The notes below the pieces were generated by a model, which saw only the letters and a list, made by a program, of their open reading frames with translations, had not been told where the DNA came from and made no database searches. Of a DNA stretch of 24,153 nucleotides, positions 12,684 to 19,470 are shown piece after piece. A program made the position numbers and the translations under genes. How positions within the stretch are numbered: position 1 is the first letter of the stretch; each line of letters opens with the position of its first letter. The DNA is taken from positions 1 through 24,153 of IMG/VR virus record IMGVR_UViG_3300037225_000071, one strand, 5' to 3'. Source of the stretch: a virus.

Positions 12684-13246
12684 TATACGATATTATCAGT
12701 TATATCAATTAAAGTAGTGTCAATATTTGGATCAATAGTAACCGTACCGCCAACAGTAGCGTCAATCTGCGTTCCGATTACTGCCATTTCCTGAACTAAT
12801 GTTGAGAATATCAATTGTGAATCAAAAACACTACCATGGTCTTTTTCAAAATCATCTGATATAAGCCTTAATTGACCGTAGTTTGTGCCTTTCATTCCTT
12901 TTATAGCATACTTAACTTGTTCCATTAATACATCTTTATCCTTCCATGATTTAGTCTCATCTGCTAAACTATGGGTAAAAACATGAAGTACAATATTTTC
13001 AATGTAGTTTTGCTCACCTGATCCGTATGCGTTTGGCGTTTGGAGTTTTGGCGGTAAATAATTAGAACGTTCAAACTCAATAAATACCTTTGGAAATTTA
13101 AATTGCTTGTGATCTTCTATGTTAGCCAGGTTAGCTTGTGAATTCCATATATCAACATGATGCAATGTACCTGAAGGAGCTAATACTAAAACTTTCGCTT
13201 CTAATTGTCTTTGAATATCATTATATAATGTTAGCCTTATGCTCAT
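12683..13246 (-). CDS. Tail terminator-like protein (Mu gp37 type)
   Basis: The 187-aa product starts MSIRLTLYNDIQRQLEAKV and has the layout of tail terminator/completion proteins: an N-terminal helix, a strand region (FKFPKVFIEFERSNYLPP, about 48-65), then IENIVLHVFTHSLADETKS and a helical segment near 105-120. The last part (QLIFSTLVQEMAVIG...) returns to strand. These form a ring that caps the tail tube so the head can join. It overlaps the upstream completion gene by four bases. Assignment is from size, predicted layout and synteny with the neighbouring completion gene. Confidence 0.55.
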   Translation of the reverse strand: MSIRLTLYNDIQRQLEAKVLVLAPSGTLHHVDIWNSQANLANIEDHKQFKFPKVFIEFERSNYLPPKLQTPNAYGSGEQNYIENIVLHVFTHSLADETKSWKDKDVLMEQVKYAIKGMKGTNYGQLRLISDDFEKDHGSVFDSQLIFSTLVQEMAVIGTQIDATVGGTVTIDPNIDTTLIDITDNIV

Positions 13247-13797
13247 TTCAGTATATTATCAATTCTTTTCTTTAGCAAATCTAATATTTTTCTATCTAAT
13301 TTAGCACTATGTCCAATATAATTACGTTGTGGCATTGTAAATGAATGACTTCCTATTGATGTTTTTTGTTGAAACTTAGCCTTTTTTGGTCTTACAAACC
13401 TATTTTTTTTACCTCCAAAACTTAATGTATGCTTATGTTCTGGTATTGTTACTTCGCCACCTTCGTTATGGATTTCAGCATATTTGATGCCACGTGTACC
13501 TATTACTATTCCATCAAACTTATAAGACAATAAAGAAACAGAACGTCTTAAATGACCTGATTTAACCAATATTGCCCGTATTTTATTTGGGTTACGTTTA
13601 TCACTTCGGTCTTTCGTTGATCTTTTCTCCCAACCACTTTCACTAGCATCTGTTTGATGTCCTCCTTTTACAAACCCTTCTATAAAATGGTTCTGCGCAA
13701 GCTTACCAATTAATAACGGAAGATCATTTCGCTTTTCAGTAGTAAATTTATTAATTATTTTCTGAAAATCCCAATTACCGAACTTTTCTATTTGCAT
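13243..13797 (-). CDS. Phage virion morphogenesis / tail completion protein (Mu gpG, P2 gpS type)
   Basis: This 184-aa basic protein carries the hallmarks of the tail completion (virion morphogenesis) family. These are an N-terminal helical region, a W-E-K-R segment (DASESGWEKRSTKDRSD, about 50-66) and LVKSGHLRRSVSLLS (about 77-91). Further along come GIKYAEIHNEGGEV (about 103-116) and a C-terminal MPQRNYIGHSAKLDRKI (about 154-170). Residues 117-145 are an Arg/Lys/His-rich insertion. The family joins tail to head. Its stop overlaps the tail terminator gene by four bases, and its ATG shares base 13797 with the MuF gene. Confidence 0.8.
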   Translation of the reverse strand: MQIEKFGNWDFQKIINKFTTEKRNDLPLLIGKLAQNHFIEGFVKGGHQTDASESGWEKRSTKDRSDKRNPNKIRAILVKSGHLRRSVSLLSYKFDGIVIGTRGIKYAEIHNEGGEVTIPEHKHTLSFGGKKNRFVRPKKAKFQQKTSIGSHSFTMPQRNYIGHSAKLDRKILDLLKKRIDNILK

Positions 13798-15815
13798 TAA
13801 TTCATGTGTGAAATTTCGTCTTTCCTAAACTTCTTTTGACCTGTAAAAACTATACACAAACTCACCGGATCTTTTTCACCATCATCATTTATCGCGTGCC
13901 AGCGCTCCTTTAATTCGCTAAAAGAAATAAAGCATCTGGTATAGCTTGAAGGGTCTTCAAATATTATTTTATCTTTTTCATACCCAATTGCTACAACGTA
14001 ATGACCGTCAGTATAATCAGTCGCCCATTCTTTAGGACTTTTTGAATCGCGCCACGCCTGTAAAAGTACAATGACTGGTTGATTATTCTTAATATAAGGG
14101 GTCAATTCTTTTGGTTCTAACCCACGCTTAACCTCAGCTTTTATATTTTCTTCACTTTCTGAAACCTTTACAATATCTTTAACATAAACGCCATTATCAA
14201 ATATATCAGTATTTTTTGCATTTAACTTTTTAAGCAATTCGTCTTCCCTGCGTTCATATCCGTAATAAGTTAATACTGATTGCAAGGCACTTGCGCCACA
14301 ATCATAATTATAAAGCTGTCTTAACTCTGGGAATTCGATCAAATGAATAATATTTGAGTGAATTGAATCTGTAATTGGTATATTAGCAATATTTTTTATT
14401 AATTTTTTAGGAAATTCCAATTTTGGTTTTTCTATCAATCCGAATGTCCTACCGTGCCTACTTTCAATAAATGAAAACCCATCTAAGTTATTTTCATGTA
14501 AAATCTTTTTTAATTTAATCCCATTTTCAAAATCGCTAGTTCTTTGACTATGTAATAAATATAATCTATCCGGTTCATATAAATATTTTTCTTTGTTATT
14601 TAATATTTCTTGATTTTTTTGTATTATTTTTTCATATTTATCAATATCTTTTTTTGATTTAGCGTATTTTAAATCAAATTCAGCATTTTCAATTTTTGCT
14701 CTTTCATTTGAAAATAAGTAATCTTCAAAGTCCTTCGCTATTAATTTTTGAGCATTTATATTACTTAAATCTAATATATTTCCATTTATTTTAGCTTCTG
14801 AGATAAAATCGCCGTATGTTTCAGCTAATTCTTTTGAGGGTGTCATAAAATAAATCTCTGCTGGATTCTTTGATATTTGACCCTTATTATAATTAGTTTC
14901 TATAAACTCACTAGGGTTTTTCTTTAATTCTATATAGTTTTCCTCCGTATCACCTCTATATACATAGCCTTTAAAATTAAATGCAGACTTATTATCAAGT
15001 AATTCCTTAACATCTTTTTCATATTGTGTTAATTTACTTTCTGGCAAGGGTAGATTAAAATTATTGTCTTTAAATTCCTGATATTTTTCAGGCACATCAA
15101 AATAAGGGTGTGCAGAAGAAAATGCAATATGCTCTTTGCCGGGATTAAATCTGAACTCGTCATTAATATCAACTTTATCCAGCCGCTCTTTTACTTCGCT
15201 TTGTGGAGTCGTATTATCTTCATCACCTGATATGACTATGCAACGGCAATTCCATTCTAAAGGCGGCGTATTTTCGTCCCAAAACGGATCGTCTACAGGT
15301 AAACAAATACCATCTAATGCCTGATGGTATTCTCTTACCCTATCATCACCAACTGTTCGTAATGTCAAATAAGGCAATGTTTCTTTTTGCGCTTCAAATT
15401 CCTGCCATTGTTCTGCACTTTGTGCTTGACTAAATGCTGTATTCATTTCTGTTTTTAGCCAGTCTTCATTAAATTCATTCCAAATAGTCTCAGCCTGTTC
15501 TTTGAATTCAGAAAATCCTATTTTAAAACCTTCGTCATCAAATACTTCTTGCTGTATCTCATAGACTTCTTGAAATGTCTTTGCAGCCGAAAAACGATAG
15601 ATGTTTTCTTCAAATGATTGTTTCATTTTAAAATCACCAACATCTTTAGTTGATATATCGTTTTTGAGGTTAGTTGATTTAAGTCCTTGCTTAACTGATT
15701 TTAATAATTCTTTTGATATAACGACATAAAGATTATCAGGTAATTTATTTAACGTGATATGTCCGTTATAAATACCTTCTAAAACATTATTTTTAATATT
15801 TGAAGAAATTATCAT
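13797..15815 (-). CDS. MuF head protein with ADP-ribosyltransferase-like and C39-like peptidase C-terminal domains
   Basis: The 672-aa protein is much longer than a plain MuF head protein. Residues about 75-192 form the Mu F/SPP1 gp7 domain, ending with RTVGDDRVREYHQALDG...PPLEWNCRC. Residues about 280-465 begin with YVYRGDT, continue with IYFMTPSKELAETYG and end NLDGFSFIESRHGRTFGLIE. This is the strand order and motif style of ADP-ribosyltransferase-like toxin domains fused to phage MuF. Residues about 490-660 form a papain-fold C39-like peptidase with Gln500, Cys506 in YDCGASAL, His605 in DGHYVVAIGY and Asp621 in FEDPSS. MuF-linked polymorphic toxins ride in the virion and may enter the next host. 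The central part is Lys/Asn/Ile-rich and more AT-rich than its neighbours, suggesting acquisition. The toxin call is inferred, and no immunity gene is seen next to it. Confidence 0.8.
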   Translation of the reverse strand: MIISSNIKNNVLEGIYNGHITLNKLPDNLYVVISKELLKSVKQGLKSTNLKNDISTKDVGDFKMKQSFEENIYRFSAAKTFQEVYEIQQEVFDDEGFKIGFSEFKEQAETIWNEFNEDWLKTEMNTAFSQAQSAEQWQEFEAQKETLPYLTLRTVGDDRVREYHQALDGICLPVDDPFWDENTPPLEWNCRCIVISGDEDNTTPQSEVKERLDKVDINDEFRFNPGKEHIAFSSAHPYFDVPEKYQEFKDNNFNLPLPESKLTQYEKDVKELLDNKSAFNFKGYVYRGDTEENYIELKKNPSEFIETNYNKGQISKNPAEIYFMTPSKELAETYGDFISEAKINGNILDLSNINAQKLIAKDFEDYLFSNERAKIENAEFDLKYAKSKKDIDKYEKIIQKNQEILNNKEKYLYEPDRLYLLHSQRTSDFENGIKLKKILHENNLDGFSFIESRHGRTFGLIEKPKLEFPKKLIKNIANIPITDSIHSNIIHLIEFPELRQLYNYDCGASALQSVLTYYGYERREDELLKKLNAKNTDIFDNGVYVKDIVKVSESEENIKAEVKRGLEPKELTPYIKNNQPVIVLLQAWRDSKSPKEWATDYTDGHYVVAIGYEKDKIIFEDPSSYTRCFISFSELKERWHAINDDGEKDPVSLCIVFTGQKKFRKDEISHMN

Positions 15816-15816
15816 A

Positions 15817-16665
15817 TTATGATATTTCTTTTATTAAAATCCACGACTCAACGTTACCATCATTAACAGCAGCTCTTAAACATGTCAATTTAACGTGCGT
15901 TGAGGCATGTGTCTCAGGTACTTCATAGCTTCCTATCAGTGTCCCACCCGCATCGTATAAGTTAAATATTATACCTCCTATCTCATAGATTGACCCTACG
16001 ATGCAATCAACTGCTATTATCCGCTGATACGTATATGCATGAAGGTTCACGGTATTATTGCCGGATACGATGATATTACGCGAGTAATATCCAACTCCAC
16101 TTAATCCTTCTACCTCACTATTGGTAAATGTTTTATCACCAAAAATGCGAGTACCTAGATAGATATTATTATCTGTATAAACCCCTCTGCTTTCGCTTGA
16201 TATTGTTGTGTGTAAATTGGGAATTGTCGTGCCGTTAATTAAATCTATTGCATCCTTTGATGTTTTATTAATTAAACTTAACAATGTTGCCCCATTGTAT
16301 GCTAATGTTCCAGTTGCACCTGTGGCAGTTGCTCTATTTATTTGATGAGTATTATGTGTTGAACCGTCTTTGAAAGTAGTTGAATATGCTGGCGAGTTAA
16401 CTAATTCATCATAAGTAGTTATTTTTGTGAAATATGTATTCGTTTTTGTATGCGAATCCACCTGCAATATTTCACCACTTAAAAAGACATACCCTACGCC
16501 TATAGTTGATGACACTAACTCACATCCCTGAATAATGCAATCTATCCCTCCGCAAAGGCCGGAAACAATACTCGTTATTGCAGCTCTATACGCCTCATCA
16601 TTCCAGCGAATATCGTCAAGATATATAGGCTCGCCACCGTTAAAATTAGTTATTAATTTGTTCAT
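15817..16665 (-). CDS. Tail fibre or baseplate-attached appendage protein
   Basis: The 282-aa protein starts MNKLITNFNGGEPIYLDDIRWNDEAYRAA, an N-terminal segment typical of baseplate-attached fibres in Bacteroidota phages. Next comes a collar-like region (VFLSGEILQVDSH, about 60-72), then STHNTHQINRATATGATGTL (about 101-120). A strand-rich C-terminal part (about 175-282) could be a carbohydrate-binding or trimer tip. It follows the gp48-like gene, matching Mu gp47-gp48-gp49 (tail fibre S). Its start lies inside a 54-bp tandem duplication: the downstream copy provides the ATG, while the upstream copy has ATA. The start at 16665 is therefore the only ATG of the pair. Confidence 0.7.
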   Translation of the reverse strand: MNKLITNFNGGEPIYLDDIRWNDEAYRAAITSIVSGLCGGIDCIIQGCELVSSTIGVGYVFLSGEILQVDSHTKTNTYFTKITTYDELVNSPAYSTTFKDGSTHNTHQINRATATGATGTLAYNGATLLSLINKTSKDAIDLINGTTIPNLHTTISSESRGVYTDNNIYLGTRIFGDKTFTNSEVEGLSGVGYYSRNIIVSGNNTVNLHAYTYQRIIAVDCIVGSIYEIGGIIFNLYDAGGTLIGSYEVPETHASTHVKLTCLRAAVNDGNVESWILIKEIS

Positions 16666-16733
16666 ATCGTTTGTATTTGTAGGCTCGCCACCGTTAAAAT
16701 TAGTTATTAATTTGTGTATATCGTTTGTATTTG
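16626..16733. repeat. 54-bp tandem direct duplication across a gene junction
   Basis: Two adjacent 54-base copies (16626-16679 and 16680-16733) differ only at two neighbouring bases (TC at 16662-16663, GT at 16716-16717). The copy near the fibre gene contains the sequence ATATGAAC on the minus strand, with ATG start and TGA stop overlapping as ATGA. In the other copy this is ATATACAC, so both the start and the stop are lost. The repeat keeps the fibre frame open (18 codons). Confidence 0.95.
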
Positions 16734-17177
16734 AAAGTTTTTGTCAGCCGGATTAAATAAATTAACTGTCTTTGTAATTTGGTTTGACTGACCCACTAAA
16801 TCTCTTGGTATCATAACTATATAACTTATTCCGTTATCACTGTATCCTTCATCTCTATTTTTAAAATATGTTTTATCTGCGGCCTCCGACCTATTGTATA
16901 GGTATGTTTTATCGGGATATGCCTCAGATTTATTATATAAATAAGTCAATGCCCCTGAATTTGTCACTAAATATATTCGTCTGTTTATTGGATCGTACAG
17001 ATCATTTATATATTTTGTAACATAAATAGTTTGATTTGTATATTTAATAAACTCCAAAATATTTGAATTGCAATATTCTAATCCATTCCCAATTGCATAA
17101 AGAAAATTTAAAAACGTTGATTTTCTTAAAAACGCAGGGATTAAATTATTTAATATTGTCCTGTTATTTATTGTCAT
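16707..17177 (-). CDS. Baseplate protein, Mu gp48 / tail protein I-like
   Basis: The 156-aa protein follows the J-like gene, overlapping by four bases, as Mu gp48 follows gp47. The N-terminus (LNNLIPAFLRKSTFLNFLYAIGNGLEYCNSNILEFI, about 9-44) is helical and resembles the first part of DUF2313-type wedge proteins. Residues about 83-115 hold three imperfect repeats (LYNKSEAYPDKT, LYNRSEAADKT, FKNRDEGYSDN). The C-terminal strand ends QIQTIYTN. The final three residues exist only because a 54-bp duplication destroyed the ancestral TGA. The wedge role is inferred from order and the helical start. Confidence 0.6.
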   Translation of the reverse strand: MTINNRTILNNLIPAFLRKSTFLNFLYAIGNGLEYCNSNILEFIKYTNQTIYVTKYINDLYDPINRRIYLVTNSGALTYLYNKSEAYPDKTYLYNRSEAADKTYFKNRDEGYSDNGISYIVMIPRDLVGQSNQITKTVNLFNPADKNFQIQTIYTN

Positions 17178-18070
17178 TGTTGTAAATAAATAATATTTTG
17201 ATTAATTAATGGATATGATGGGTCTATCGCTAGATATCCTGAATTAGTAATATATGATCTTGAGCTGGTCGCTAATATATTACTATACTCCAAATCACCG
17301 TATTTGGCTTTTACTTCTTCTGCTATAGCGTCAAATACTCCTGGGGTTAATCTAATTGCATTAGTCAAGTTTGACACATAAAAAGTTCCGTTAAAGCTTA
17401 ACGCATCCAAATACTGTATATAATTATTAATCGAATCAACAATTGGGAATACTGTATTATTTACAATTAATGAACCATTTAAGGCATCTGTTGGATCGCT
17501 TGTATTCAAATAAATTATTGTTGGATCAATATAAACAGTATAGATTATTTTCAATAAATCTGCACTATTATTGATAATCGAATAAACTGTACCTAAAGGT
17601 GCAATCAGCTTTATATATGCGTCAAGGGCTGATAATTGCGTGCATGTCAAAGGAGTTAATGTCTCTGTTCCTGTTGCTACTTTAATATATATAATCCCAT
17701 TTGCAGAATTAACTGCACACTGCGTAATAATTAAATGCGATGGAATAATAGTTTGATAAATATATTCGTCACCATTCCAGACTAGACTATCGCCGTATTG
17801 GAATGCTTTTACTACATTCACCCACCATGCTACTGTCGCTGATTTTGATGAACTAACCTCATTTTCAATCGTGTTTTCAAATATCCATATTGCGACTGAA
17901 ACAACGTAGAAAATAAGTCTCCAAATAGCTACTTTTGACGTACTCGTTAAATCAGTTAACAATGATTGAGCTGGATTTATCTGAGCGGTTGGGCTTAAAT
18001 TACTTAAATTACTGAAAGTTTCCTTTTCAGTAATCATTTGATTATATATTTGCGCAATATTCCGAGCCAT
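17174..18070 (-). CDS. Baseplate wedge protein, J-like (Mu gp47 role)
   Basis: The 298-aa protein begins MARNIAQIYNQMITEKETFS and has TSTSKVAIWRLIFYVVSVAIWIFE at about 42-65, a strongly hydrophobic helix characteristic of J-like wedge proteins in Bacteroidota prophages. The centre contains FQYGDSLVWNGDEYIYQT (about 90-107). The second half has NSADLLKIIYTVYIDPTIIYLN and a wedge-like INNYIQYLDALSFNGTFYVSNL stretch. J/gp47/T4 gp6-type proteins form the iris of the baseplate and trigger contraction. Its ATG shares base 18070 with the portal stop (TAATG). Placement directly after the portal rather than after the hub genes is unusual. Confidence 0.65.
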   Translation of the reverse strand: MARNIAQIYNQMITEKETFSNLSNLSPTAQINPAQSLLTDLTSTSKVAIWRLIFYVVSVAIWIFENTIENEVSSSKSATVAWWVNVVKAFQYGDSLVWNGDEYIYQTIIPSHLIITQCAVNSANGIIYIKVATGTETLTPLTCTQLSALDAYIKLIAPLGTVYSIINNSADLLKIIYTVYIDPTIIYLNTSDPTDALNGSLIVNNTVFPIVDSINNYIQYLDALSFNGTFYVSNLTNAIRLTPGVFDAIAEEVKAKYGDLEYSNILATSSRSYITNSGYLAIDPSYPLINQNIIYLQQ

Positions 18071-19470
18071 TATTTATGTTTTTTATACATATTTTTTAAT
18101 TGTTCCATTTTGCTTTTATCGCTTCGCATTTCGTCTATTTTTTGAAGATAGTTAAACCATGGCAGTTCAGCGATATTTTTTGATTCTTCAATCACTTGCT
18201 TTGGGTTTAATTGTTGCATTTGTTGGACAACTTCAATTTTACCTTTAGCCCCTAAATCTAAGTACTGATCAACAAAATTAGGATCAAATTTATATCCAAC
18301 CTGTCCAAGATCATGAACTAACTTAACTTTATTCTCAAATTTTACATCATCTTCATATTCGTACCTAAAATGCAACCCATCTAATCCTTTAATTCCTAAT
18401 TTAATCATTTTAGGAATTAAATCCGTATTGGTTAAATATCTGATCTTACGTAAAAATGAACTTAATATATCGTCAAATAAATCTTGGTGTACTTCGCCCT
18501 GCGAACGGCTTGACCCTGAATCAAACATCATTGTTTGGCCTGCAAGTAATTTTGAAACCTCTTTATTTGCTAATTCAATCGCTTCTTTATAAATATTATA
18601 GGCATCCGTCCGGCTTGTTTCAATGAAATCAATATTATCGTCAGTATCCATCACCGCCCAGCCTGCATTACCCATGTTTATCATCATATTCTCCATGTTC
18701 TTTCTTCGCAGGACATCGCGTATATCCGTTGTTCCTTTTCTTAATGGCGCACCAAATAATTCAGAATACTGCCACCAAAATAAATTAACATTTTTTTTCC
18801 CAATCATGTGCGGTACGCACTTATTCAGAAGTCCAATATCCTTATTGTCAATCATTATTAACCAAGGCTCGTACTTTTTATCTTCCCTGTAATTAGTGCC
18901 ACCGTCTCTCGCTGTTATATAAAGTGTATGCTTTACTAAATCCCACTCAGGAACTACATACTGACGTGCAATCTGCTCGACCGACACAAATGTATTATTT
19001 CTTATTGCGCCTAACTGAACAAGAGAAAACCCGTACCAAACACTTTCTATTACTGCATCAATCCAATCTAAAAACCATTGTTGCTCAAATATTTCATAAG
19101 CATTTTCATTTTCATTTCCCTTTTGATCAATTAATTGATATTCTTTAGATTTAATTTTATTTTTAATTGCATTCATTACACCAGATAAGTGAGCATCCAA
19201 GGTGATGTCTTTATAGACCTGCATCATTTCGGTACGATCTGGTAATAAGACACTTTCAGCTTGGTTAACGGCAGCAATCCAACGGTTAAGGTCAACGCGA
19301 ATCTGAAACATTTGAAGTTTCATGATTGTGTCTTCAATCCACATTGGATTACGTGCGCCTTTTTCTTGTTTATGCGGCTCGATAATACTTGAATCAGACT
19401 TAACTATATTTGAAACAGGTTCAATCTTTTTGCGTGGCCTTCCTACTGGCCTTTTAACATTTTCTGCCAT
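18070..19470 (-). CDS. Portal protein, Mu gp29-like (DUF935)
   Basis: The 466-aa protein is close to the usual DUF935 portal length. The N-terminus is basic and AT-hook-like (KRPVGRPRKK, 5-14). The body has AVNQAESVLLPDRTEMMQVYKDITLDAHLSGVMNAIKNKIKSKEY (about 67-111), the conserved DUF935 helical segment, then WYGFSLVQLGA (about 144-154). It also has the NLFWWQYSELFGAPLRKG motif (about 228-245) and the SKLLAGQTMMFDSGSSRSQGEVHQ region (about 307-330) expected at the crown/clip end. It forms the dodecameric channel through which TerL drives DNA. It shares base 19470 with the connector gene stop. Confidence 0.9.
   Translation of the reverse strand: MAENVKRPVGRPRKKIEPVSNIVKSDSSIIEPHKQEKGARNPMWIEDTIMKLQMFQIRVDLNRWIAAVNQAESVLLPDRTEMMQVYKDITLDAHLSGVMNAIKNKIKSKEYQLIDQKGNENENAYEIFEQQWFLDWIDAVIESVWYGFSLVQLGAIRNNTFVSVEQIARQYVVPEWDLVKHTLYITARDGGTNYREDKKYEPWLIMIDNKDIGLLNKCVPHMIGKKNVNLFWWQYSELFGAPLRKGTTDIRDVLRRKNMENMMINMGNAGWAVMDTDDNIDFIETSRTDAYNIYKEAIELANKEVSKLLAGQTMMFDSGSSRSQGEVHQDLFDDILSSFLRKIRYLTNTDLIPKMIKLGIKGLDGLHFRYEYEDDVKFENKVKLVHDLGQVGYKFDPNFVDQYLDLGAKGKIEVVQQMQQLNPKQVIEESKNIAELPWFNYLQKIDEMRSDKSKMEQLKNMYKKHK

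What the first reader, a model, noticed from the sequence alone, without database searches (positions are those of the whole stretch)
13797..15815. MuF head protein fused to an ADP-ribosyltransferase-like region and a C39-type peptidase: a candidate virion-delivered effector
The first ~190 residues are a normal MuF domain (R-x-x-x-H...NCRC). The remaining ~480 residues hold two putative catalytic modules. One (about 280-465) has YVYRG, IYFMTPSKELAETYG and a late SFIESRHGRTFG, in ADP-ribosyltransferase style. The other (490-660) is a papain-fold domain with Gln500, Cys506, His605 and Asp621. MuF-linked polymorphic toxins are established in temperate phages. Two enzymatic domains in tandem, with the C39-like peptidase last, suggest either self-release of the ART module from the head protein or two effectors delivered with DNA. 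The middle portion is unusually AT- and Lys/Asn-rich, suggesting domain swapping.
Basis: partly seen in the sequence, partly recalled or inferred. Interest (0 to 1): 0.82.

Follow-up and report, generated by a model that had tools for sequence, protein, structure and literature searches.

The report
Phage head protein carrying a protease
A bacteriophage head protein carries an intact-looking cysteine-protease domain, with an unusual AT-rich module in front of it, that are probably delivered into the bacterium with the phage DNA; the protease is recognisable, while the claimed toxin-like identity of the extra module is unproven.

Summary
The 672-aa minus-strand ORF is real. It has three parts: a MuF head module (1-258), an insert (259-473) and a C39-type cysteine peptidase (474-672) with Gln500, Cys506, His605 and Asp621 as stated. 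The peptidase is firm by Pfam and by a predicted structure matching solved C39 peptidases. The ADP-ribosyltransferase (ART) label is not established: no ART profile match, poor structure confidence, one weak unannotated homologue. The insert is AT-richer (24.7% GC) than its flanks (33%), and a related phage has MuF-C39 without it (but with an intein in MuF). So MuF-C39 is probably the older unit, which weakens self-release of an ART as the purpose of C39. The same C39 family is fused to portal proteins, apparently twice independently, and stands alone in other, some very large, phages, sometimes behind a leader resembling T4 capsid-targeting sequences. Among the window's relatives, 17 of 26 MuF extensions carry HExxH. 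Best reading: a head-carried peptidase effector injected with DNA, with a later inserted second module. No immunity gene is adjacent, so I do not file it as a MuF polymorphic toxin. New variant of a known kind.

The parts
15042..15815 (-). MuF head module, residues 1-258 (Phage_Mu_F at 117-195)
   Evidence: Pfam PF04233 E 1.9e-16; tblastn to Winoviridae Flavobacterium phages, up to 44% identity; relatives without an extension end at the same point
14397..15041 (-). AT-rich inserted module, residues 259-473; ART-like by motif only, fold not established
   Evidence: 24.7% GC against 33.2/33.5% of the flanks; absent from the sister MuF-C39 protein L015; AF2 low confidence; one weak homologue L207
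13797..14396 (-). C39-type cysteine peptidase domain, residues 474-672, and stop codon
   Evidence: PF13529 E 1.1e-14 and PF03412 E 1.7e-9; AF2 pLDDT 80-98 per ten residues from about residue 489 on, and Foldseek hits to C39 peptidases 3erv, 6mpz, 3k8u
14298..14300 (-). codon of catalytic Cys506
   Evidence: residue checked; invariant in 50 rows
14316..14318 (-). codon of Gln500 (oxyanion-hole position)
   Evidence: invariant in 50 rows
14001..14003 (-). codon of catalytic His605
   Evidence: invariant in 50 rows
13953..13955 (-). codon of Asp621
   Evidence: 90% or more in 50 rows
13243..13797 (-). next gene, 184 aa, neck/tail-completion; no ORF of 60 aa or more on this strand lies between it and the MuF gene
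   Evidence: phrog_26 E 2.1e-11
18070..19470 (-). portal protein gene of the same head module
   Evidence: phrog_113 E 1.1e-42

Best explanation
The protein is a MuF head component used as a carrier for a C39-type cysteine peptidase. The MuF part places it at the portal vertex inside the head, it leaves with the DNA, and the peptidase acts in the infected bacterium on a host protein. The AT-rich middle module was inserted later between MuF and C39 and may be a second, ART-like effector. Shown here: the three-part anatomy, the C39 fold (predicted) and intact catalytic residues, existence of MuF-C39 without the insert, two C39-portal fusions whose C39 parts are not one clade, and the odd composition of the insert. 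Inferred: position in the virion, ejection, target, and any activity of the insert.
For: C39 domain by Pfam and predicted structure. Catalytic residues conserved across 50 rows. Sister phage L015 with a similar gene order has MuF-C39, 57% identical in C39. C39 also at the C-terminus of portal proteins in L169 (Phage_portal E 5.4e-19) and L189 (E 4.1e-32); one clade for the two is rejected (AU p 1.7e-6). Phage C39s not fused to a head protein carry an aromatic N-terminal leader in 9 of 30 against 21 of 334 neighbouring ORFs (Fisher p 0.0002, 0.002 after removing near-copies; the pattern was set after I had seen these N-termini, so p is descriptive). In one phage contig both C39 genes are among the 19 of 305 ORFs with a shared leader (also looked for after the fact). 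17 of 26 MuF C-terminal extensions in relatives hold HExxH. Literature (passages read): other enzyme domains (PBECR, 2H, NudE, ART) are fused to MuF and portal and read as head-packaged and injected (PMC5512222; PMC9503650).
Against: No virion, ejection or activity data. 21 of 30 unfused phage C39s lack the leader pattern, and many C39 relatives are in cellular genomes, some with signal-peptide-like N-termini by eye, so the family is not specific to heads. Only two MuF-C39 proteins were found (window and L015). 53 of 79 related MuF proteins have no extension over 80 aa, so the function is dispensable. HExxH was scored as a motif; Pfam names a peptidase-type domain in few of these.
Confidence: 0.57

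Rival explanations
1. Assembly or self-processing peptidase: C39 cuts the MuF protein itself, or another head protein, during or after assembly or delivery, freeing the insert or trimming the head.
For: Peptidase-type extensions dominate this position in relatives: 17 of 26 HExxH, plus C39 in L015. Papain-like releasing peptidases are described in polymorphic toxins, and Tox-PL1, of which some versions are thought to be releasing peptidases, is fused to MuF (PMC3482391, passages).
Against: 53 of 79 relatives have no extension over 80 aa. Sister L015 has C39 without the insert. No Gly-Gly in the window protein. C39 is a short separate protein in 30 of 33 viral ORFs inspected. Related phages carry a separate Clp-type protease in the head module (annotation).
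Confidence: 0.25
2. Classical MuF polymorphic toxin: the C-terminus is an antibacterial toxin used between lysogens and competitors, with an immunity protein.
For: MuF N-terminus with variable C-termini; MuF-ART toxin Bxa with immunity proteins is known in Bacteroides (PMC11699363).
Against: The next gene is a 184-aa neck protein meeting the MuF stop, with no ORF between, whereas 89.4% of MuF toxin genes are followed by an ORF under 150 aa (PMC5576092). In sister L015 the next ORF is 153 aa and by eye the counterpart of the same neck gene.
Confidence: 0.12
3. The insert is a true ADP-ribosyltransferase of the R-S-E type (Arg of YVYRGD, Ser of MTPSKE, Glu of GFSFIE), so that the protein delivers two enzymes. 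(Compatible with the other readings.)
For: Motif order; the only candidate homologue, L207, keeps Y-R-x-D, F-x-T-x-S-K-E and G-[FY]-x-x-x-E; local score 109 against 40.5 with s.d. 6.8 for shuffles, 0 of 1000 as high.
Against: No ART family in Pfam, PDB or PHROGs searches of the window segment, of L207 or of their two-row profile; the best Pfam line for the segment is DUF3271 at E 0.0063, under its cut-off. Mean pLDDT 49 alone. hhalign against two motif-similar phage families gives 0.1% and 0.8% probability. L207's pairwise E of 2e-6 is about what a search of 395 genomes could give by chance, and its E in that search was 0.009 with two other places scoring better.
Confidence: 0.35

Closest known systems
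MuF fused to Tox-PL1 papain-like peptidase (Zhang 2012, PMC3482391, passages read)
   Same: MuF head protein plus a papain-fold cysteine peptidase, in phage head gene neighbourhoods
   Different: Tox-PL1 is another clade of the papain fold; Zhang's table lists Tox-PLC39 with T2SS, T6SS and PVC delivery, not MuF
Bxa, MuF-ADP-ribosyltransferase of a Bacteroides prophage (PMC11699363, abstract and two sections read)
   Same: Bacteroidota-type MuF protein with a C-terminal enzyme
   Different: Bxa is a demonstrated ART with two immunity proteins beside it; here ART identity is unproven, no immunity gene is adjacent, and a C39 domain follows
Effector domains fused to MuF or portal: PBECR, 2H, NudE, ART (PMC5512222, PMC9503650, passages read)
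   Same: An enzyme domain recruited to both MuF and portal proteins
   Different: C39 is not named in the main text of either paper (0 occurrences of words beginning 'C39' or 'papain')
T4 internal proteins and Alt (PMC3012670 and PMC5512222, passages read)
   Same: Head-packaged proteins; short N-terminal capsid targeting sequence for the internal proteins, injection with DNA for Alt
   Different: T4 proteins are separate polypeptides; in the window the enzyme is fused to MuF
C39 peptidases of ABC transporters (PCAT1, ComA)
   Same: Fold by predicted structure and Cys/His/Asp site
   Different: No transporter, no double-glycine substrate visible

Membership tests
MuF head protein (PF04233) | Phage_Mu_F profile over its cut-off, in a head gene module | tested here: met
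   61.3 bits against cut-off 29.6; portal, terminase and neck genes in the window
C39 peptidase (PF13529/PF03412) | profile over cut-off | tested here: met
   55.6 against 24 and 38 against 22 bits
C39 peptidase (PF13529/PF03412) | papain fold with Gln, Cys, His, Asp | tested here: met
C39 peptidase (PF13529/PF03412) | proteolytic activity | not testable with these tools
   needs a bench assay
ADP-ribosyltransferase | profile match to a known ART family | tested here: not met
ADP-ribosyltransferase | ART structural core | tested here: inconclusive
   model confidence too low
ADP-ribosyltransferase | catalytic triad in order (R-S-E or H-Y-D/E) | tested here: inconclusive
   letters fit R-S-E in the window and in one weak homologue only
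MuF polymorphic toxin (Jamet 2017) | variable C-terminal domains on a common MuF domain | tested here: met
MuF polymorphic toxin (Jamet 2017) | small ORF under 150 aa directly downstream | tested here: not met
   next gene 184 aa, phrog_26
MuF polymorphic toxin (Jamet 2017) | carried by a temperate phage | not tested
   24,153-base virus record; no search for lysogeny genes made
Head-packaged injected effector | present in virions and ejected with DNA | not testable with these tools
   only fusion and leader patterns

The most novel reading that the evidence does not exclude
C39-type cysteine peptidases are an overlooked class of phage head cargo, loaded by three routes (fusion to MuF, fusion to the portal, and a capsid-targeting leader, in one large phage contig beside other leader-bearing putative effectors including a zeta-toxin-like kinase), and injected to cut host defence or regulatory proteins at the moment of infection. 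In the window phage a second, previously undescribed enzyme module has recently been inserted into that carrier.
Probability: 0.35. Interest if true: 0.75.

Novelty: new variant of a known kind. Interest (0 to 1): 0.5.

Why it matters
Enzymes on MuF proteins are known, but which enzymes phages place in their heads, and why peptidases are favoured in some lineages, is open. A C39 peptidase recruited to two different head proteins gives a testable case: it predicts a protease in virions and a host substrate cut soon after infection. The sister pair with and without the insert gives a natural comparison for the insert.

Tried and rejected
Scans of viral contigs with the whole protein, the insert, L207 and their alignment found no relative. 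The insert against the phage collection gave 5 records, best E 0.1 (a structural protein of Yersinia phages GN1 and YerA41, regions looked at, not taken as a homologue). Of 395 genomes of the class of G001 (a Chryseobacterium-titled MAG), 61 had a match at E up to 1. L207 was third by E there; the two better places (L205, L206) gave no alignment in a repeat tblastn, and of the aligned ones only L207 covers the motifs. L207 against 87 genomes of its order: itself and 3 genomes with weak hits (E 0.002-0.008), not followed. A two-row profile over 395 genomes of the phylum gave L207 and four weak hits; three of the four re-aligned and do not share the motifs by eye, the fourth gave no alignment. 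ART families PF18760 and PF03496 matched 1 of 149 genomes each at E up to 0.001, too few to build a comparison profile. The leader-bearing families of contig G009 looked ART-like by eye but do not match the window insert and are of unknown function in PHROGs. No fold search was run on the insert-only model because its confidence is too low. The C39 tree puts the window next to portal-fused L169 rather than MuF-fused L015 (support 100/97), which would mean the domain moved between head proteins, but one clade for the two MuF-fused rows is not rejected (p 0.09), so I do not claim it. Left out of the ORF inspection: 32 of 75 genome loci and 3 of 36 viral loci. The tree used 68 rows: four duplicates and ORFs over 260 aa without a head domain were dropped, L006 and L259 added. 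Papers: MuF with C39 as whole words occur together in one held paper; by word start in 277, of which the ten listed hold one on phages or toxins, the same paper. MuF with intein: none as whole words, 32 by word start, the ten listed not on phage heads by title. Portal protein with C39, phage and peptidase: four papers, of which only PMC3482391 was opened. An ejected phage cysteine protease with portal terms: none.

Full report
Observation. The finding gives no strand; the ORF is on the minus strand, 15815 to 13797, 672 aa. Pfam finds Phage_Mu_F at 117-195 and Peptidase_C39_2 at 494-622, both over their cut-offs, and no family over its cut-off in 259-480. The record is a 24,153-base virus contig with terminase, portal, MuF and neck genes by PHROGs. 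The best MuF relatives in annotated phages are Flavobacterium phages of the family Winoviridae, so the host is probably a member of the Bacteroidota (inference).

The MuF part ends at about residue 258. In Flavobacterium phage FPSV-S1 the whole MuF protein is 253 aa, and many relatives stop at the same point. A MuF scan of viral contigs kept the best 80 loci of at least 571 relatives. These 80 and nine annotated records give 89 MuF ORFs, 79 of them distinct: 53 have no extension over 80 aa and 26 have one; 17 of the 26 contain HExxH. The background figure, 21 of 447 ORFs of 200 aa or more, includes these. Five of the 26 run into a contig end (L010, L030, L051, L061, L085). A Pfam scan of 28 proteins (the 26, one identical copy and the window) names C39 in two members and PBECR2, Gln_amidase, CdiA_C, LPD3, an M78 peptidase and a few weak families in one each; 7 of 28 also hold the Mu-type portal domain in the same polypeptide.

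The C39 domain. AlphaFold2 with 50 rows gives pLDDT 80-98 per ten residues over this domain from about residue 489, and Foldseek matches C39 peptidases (3erv E 8.9e-8, PCAT1-type peptidase 6mpz E 4.3e-7, ComA 3k8u E 2.2e-6). The finding's Gln500, Cys506, His605 and Asp621 are correct; Q, C and H are invariant over 50 rows and D is at 90% or more.

The sister protein. L015 (IMGVR_UViG_3300027896_000324) encodes an 805-aa MuF protein in a similar gene order, with an extra opposite-strand ORF upstream. Its C39 is 57% identical and its MuF 53%. It lacks the middle module: after 'NFNLPLP' a linker of about 25 residues leads to C39. It carries an intein of about 340 residues inside the NCRC motif (LAGLIDADG_3 E 1.1e-5; intein splicing domain E 5.9e-4, under its cut-off). 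The window's middle module has 24.7% GC against 33.2% (MuF) and 33.5% (C39), almost the lowest of any 645-bp stretch in the window. The simplest history is insertion of a foreign module into a MuF-C39 gene. Loss from L015 is possible but would not explain the composition.

The insert is not identified. The best Pfam line is DUF3271 at E 0.0063, 16.7 against a cut-off of 22.5 bits; the best PHROGs line is E 0.035; nothing in PADLOC or, by a two-row profile, in PDB. AlphaFold2 gives low confidence with and without the C39 rows except for a helical hairpin. None of 1000 shuffles reaches its score, but it came from a search of 395 genomes where its E was 0.009 for one genome and two other places scored better, so it is suggestive only. 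L207 lies 1.3 kb from a reverse transcriptase that matches PADLOC's RT and retron models. The motif pattern fits an R-S-E ADP-ribosyltransferase (recalled pattern; Zhang's table lists Tox-ART-RSE), but that is a lead, not a test.

C39 in other phages. Scans with a five-row C39 alignment gave 75 genome loci and 36 viral loci; two others gave 3 and 8, partly the same. Of 33 viral loci whose ORFs I read, three are fused to head proteins: L170 (the same contig as L015) to MuF, L169 and L189 to portal proteins; L169's gene is followed by a 337-aa ORF that looks like a prohead protease by eye. In the tree L189 lies in another clade than L169, and one clade for the two is rejected (p 1.7e-6). The other 30 are ORFs of 189-323 aa; 7 of these 30 records carry both a T4-type portal over the cut-off and a T4-type prohead protease, and none of 18 records searched, other than L015's, has a MuF match. 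Nine of the 30 C39 proteins begin with a leader of the kind aromatic-x-x-aromatic-hydrophobic-(0-3)-Glu (for example MKNYSEFLLE) against 21 of 334 neighbouring ORFs; p 0.0002, or 0.002 after removing near-copies. I set the pattern after seeing the N-termini, so these p-values are descriptive. T4 internal proteins are packaged through a short conserved capsid targeting sequence (PMC3012670, passages); the resemblance of the leaders to it is from memory. In contig G009, 19 of 305 ORFs match a leader pattern, 16 of them beginning MRL, among them both C39 genes and a gene whose counterpart in L259 is zeta-toxin-like.

Mechanism. From these facts I infer that the MuF part carries C39 in the head and that it leaves with the DNA, as proposed for MuF- and portal-fused domains in print (PMC5512222, PMC9503650, PMC5576092; passages). 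Self-release of an ART is not needed to explain C39 and is weakened by L015, by separate and portal-fused C39s, and by the lack of Gly-Gly. Against me, PMC5512222 proposes that inbuilt peptidases separate the domains of polyvalent phage proteins, so a self-trimming role stays open at 0.25. The polymorphic-toxin reading fails its immunity-gene feature here: the next gene is a 184-aa neck protein.

Novelty. MuF with papain-like peptidases and MuF with ARTs are in print (PMC3482391, PMC11699363). MuF with C39, or portal with C39, I did not find in the passages and listings seen. I rate it a new variant of a known kind.

Noticed in passing
L015:3558-5975 (IMGVR_UViG_3300027896_000324): Intein with a LAGLIDADG domain inserted in the NCRC motif of a MuF head protein; no held paper has MuF and intein as whole words.
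   Followed up: partly
L259:5330-9697 and contig G009 at 104.5-108.9 kb: Run of adjacent phage genes sharing an MRLxx[FY][IL] leader: a C39, members of two families of unknown function that resemble each other (hhalign 82%), and a zeta-toxin-like kinase; 19 of 305 ORFs in G009 match the leader pattern.
   Followed up: partly
L270:6473-9595: The only homologue candidate of the window insert stands near a reverse transcriptase matching PADLOC RT and retron models, with a DnaB-like ATPase (by eye) between them.
   Followed up: partly
loci L094-L110, L116, L139: Short standalone C39 proteins, many of about 175 aa, turn up in contigs titled Patescibacteria-type bacteria and DPANN-type archaea.
   Followed up: no
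L006:3953-4540 (LR756501, 735,411-base phage): A separate C39 relative in a very large phage genome, 38% identical to the window domain.
   Followed up: partly
window 15817-18070: Three genes, by eye of tail or baseplate type, lie between the portal and MuF genes; [quoted passage not shown] L015 has three counterparts upstream of its MuF gene.
   Followed up: no
L005, L010, L030, L036, L052, L073, L084: Portal and MuF in one polypeptide in 7 of 28 scanned proteins (one search gives the number; the locus names are inferred from ORF lengths).
   Followed up: no
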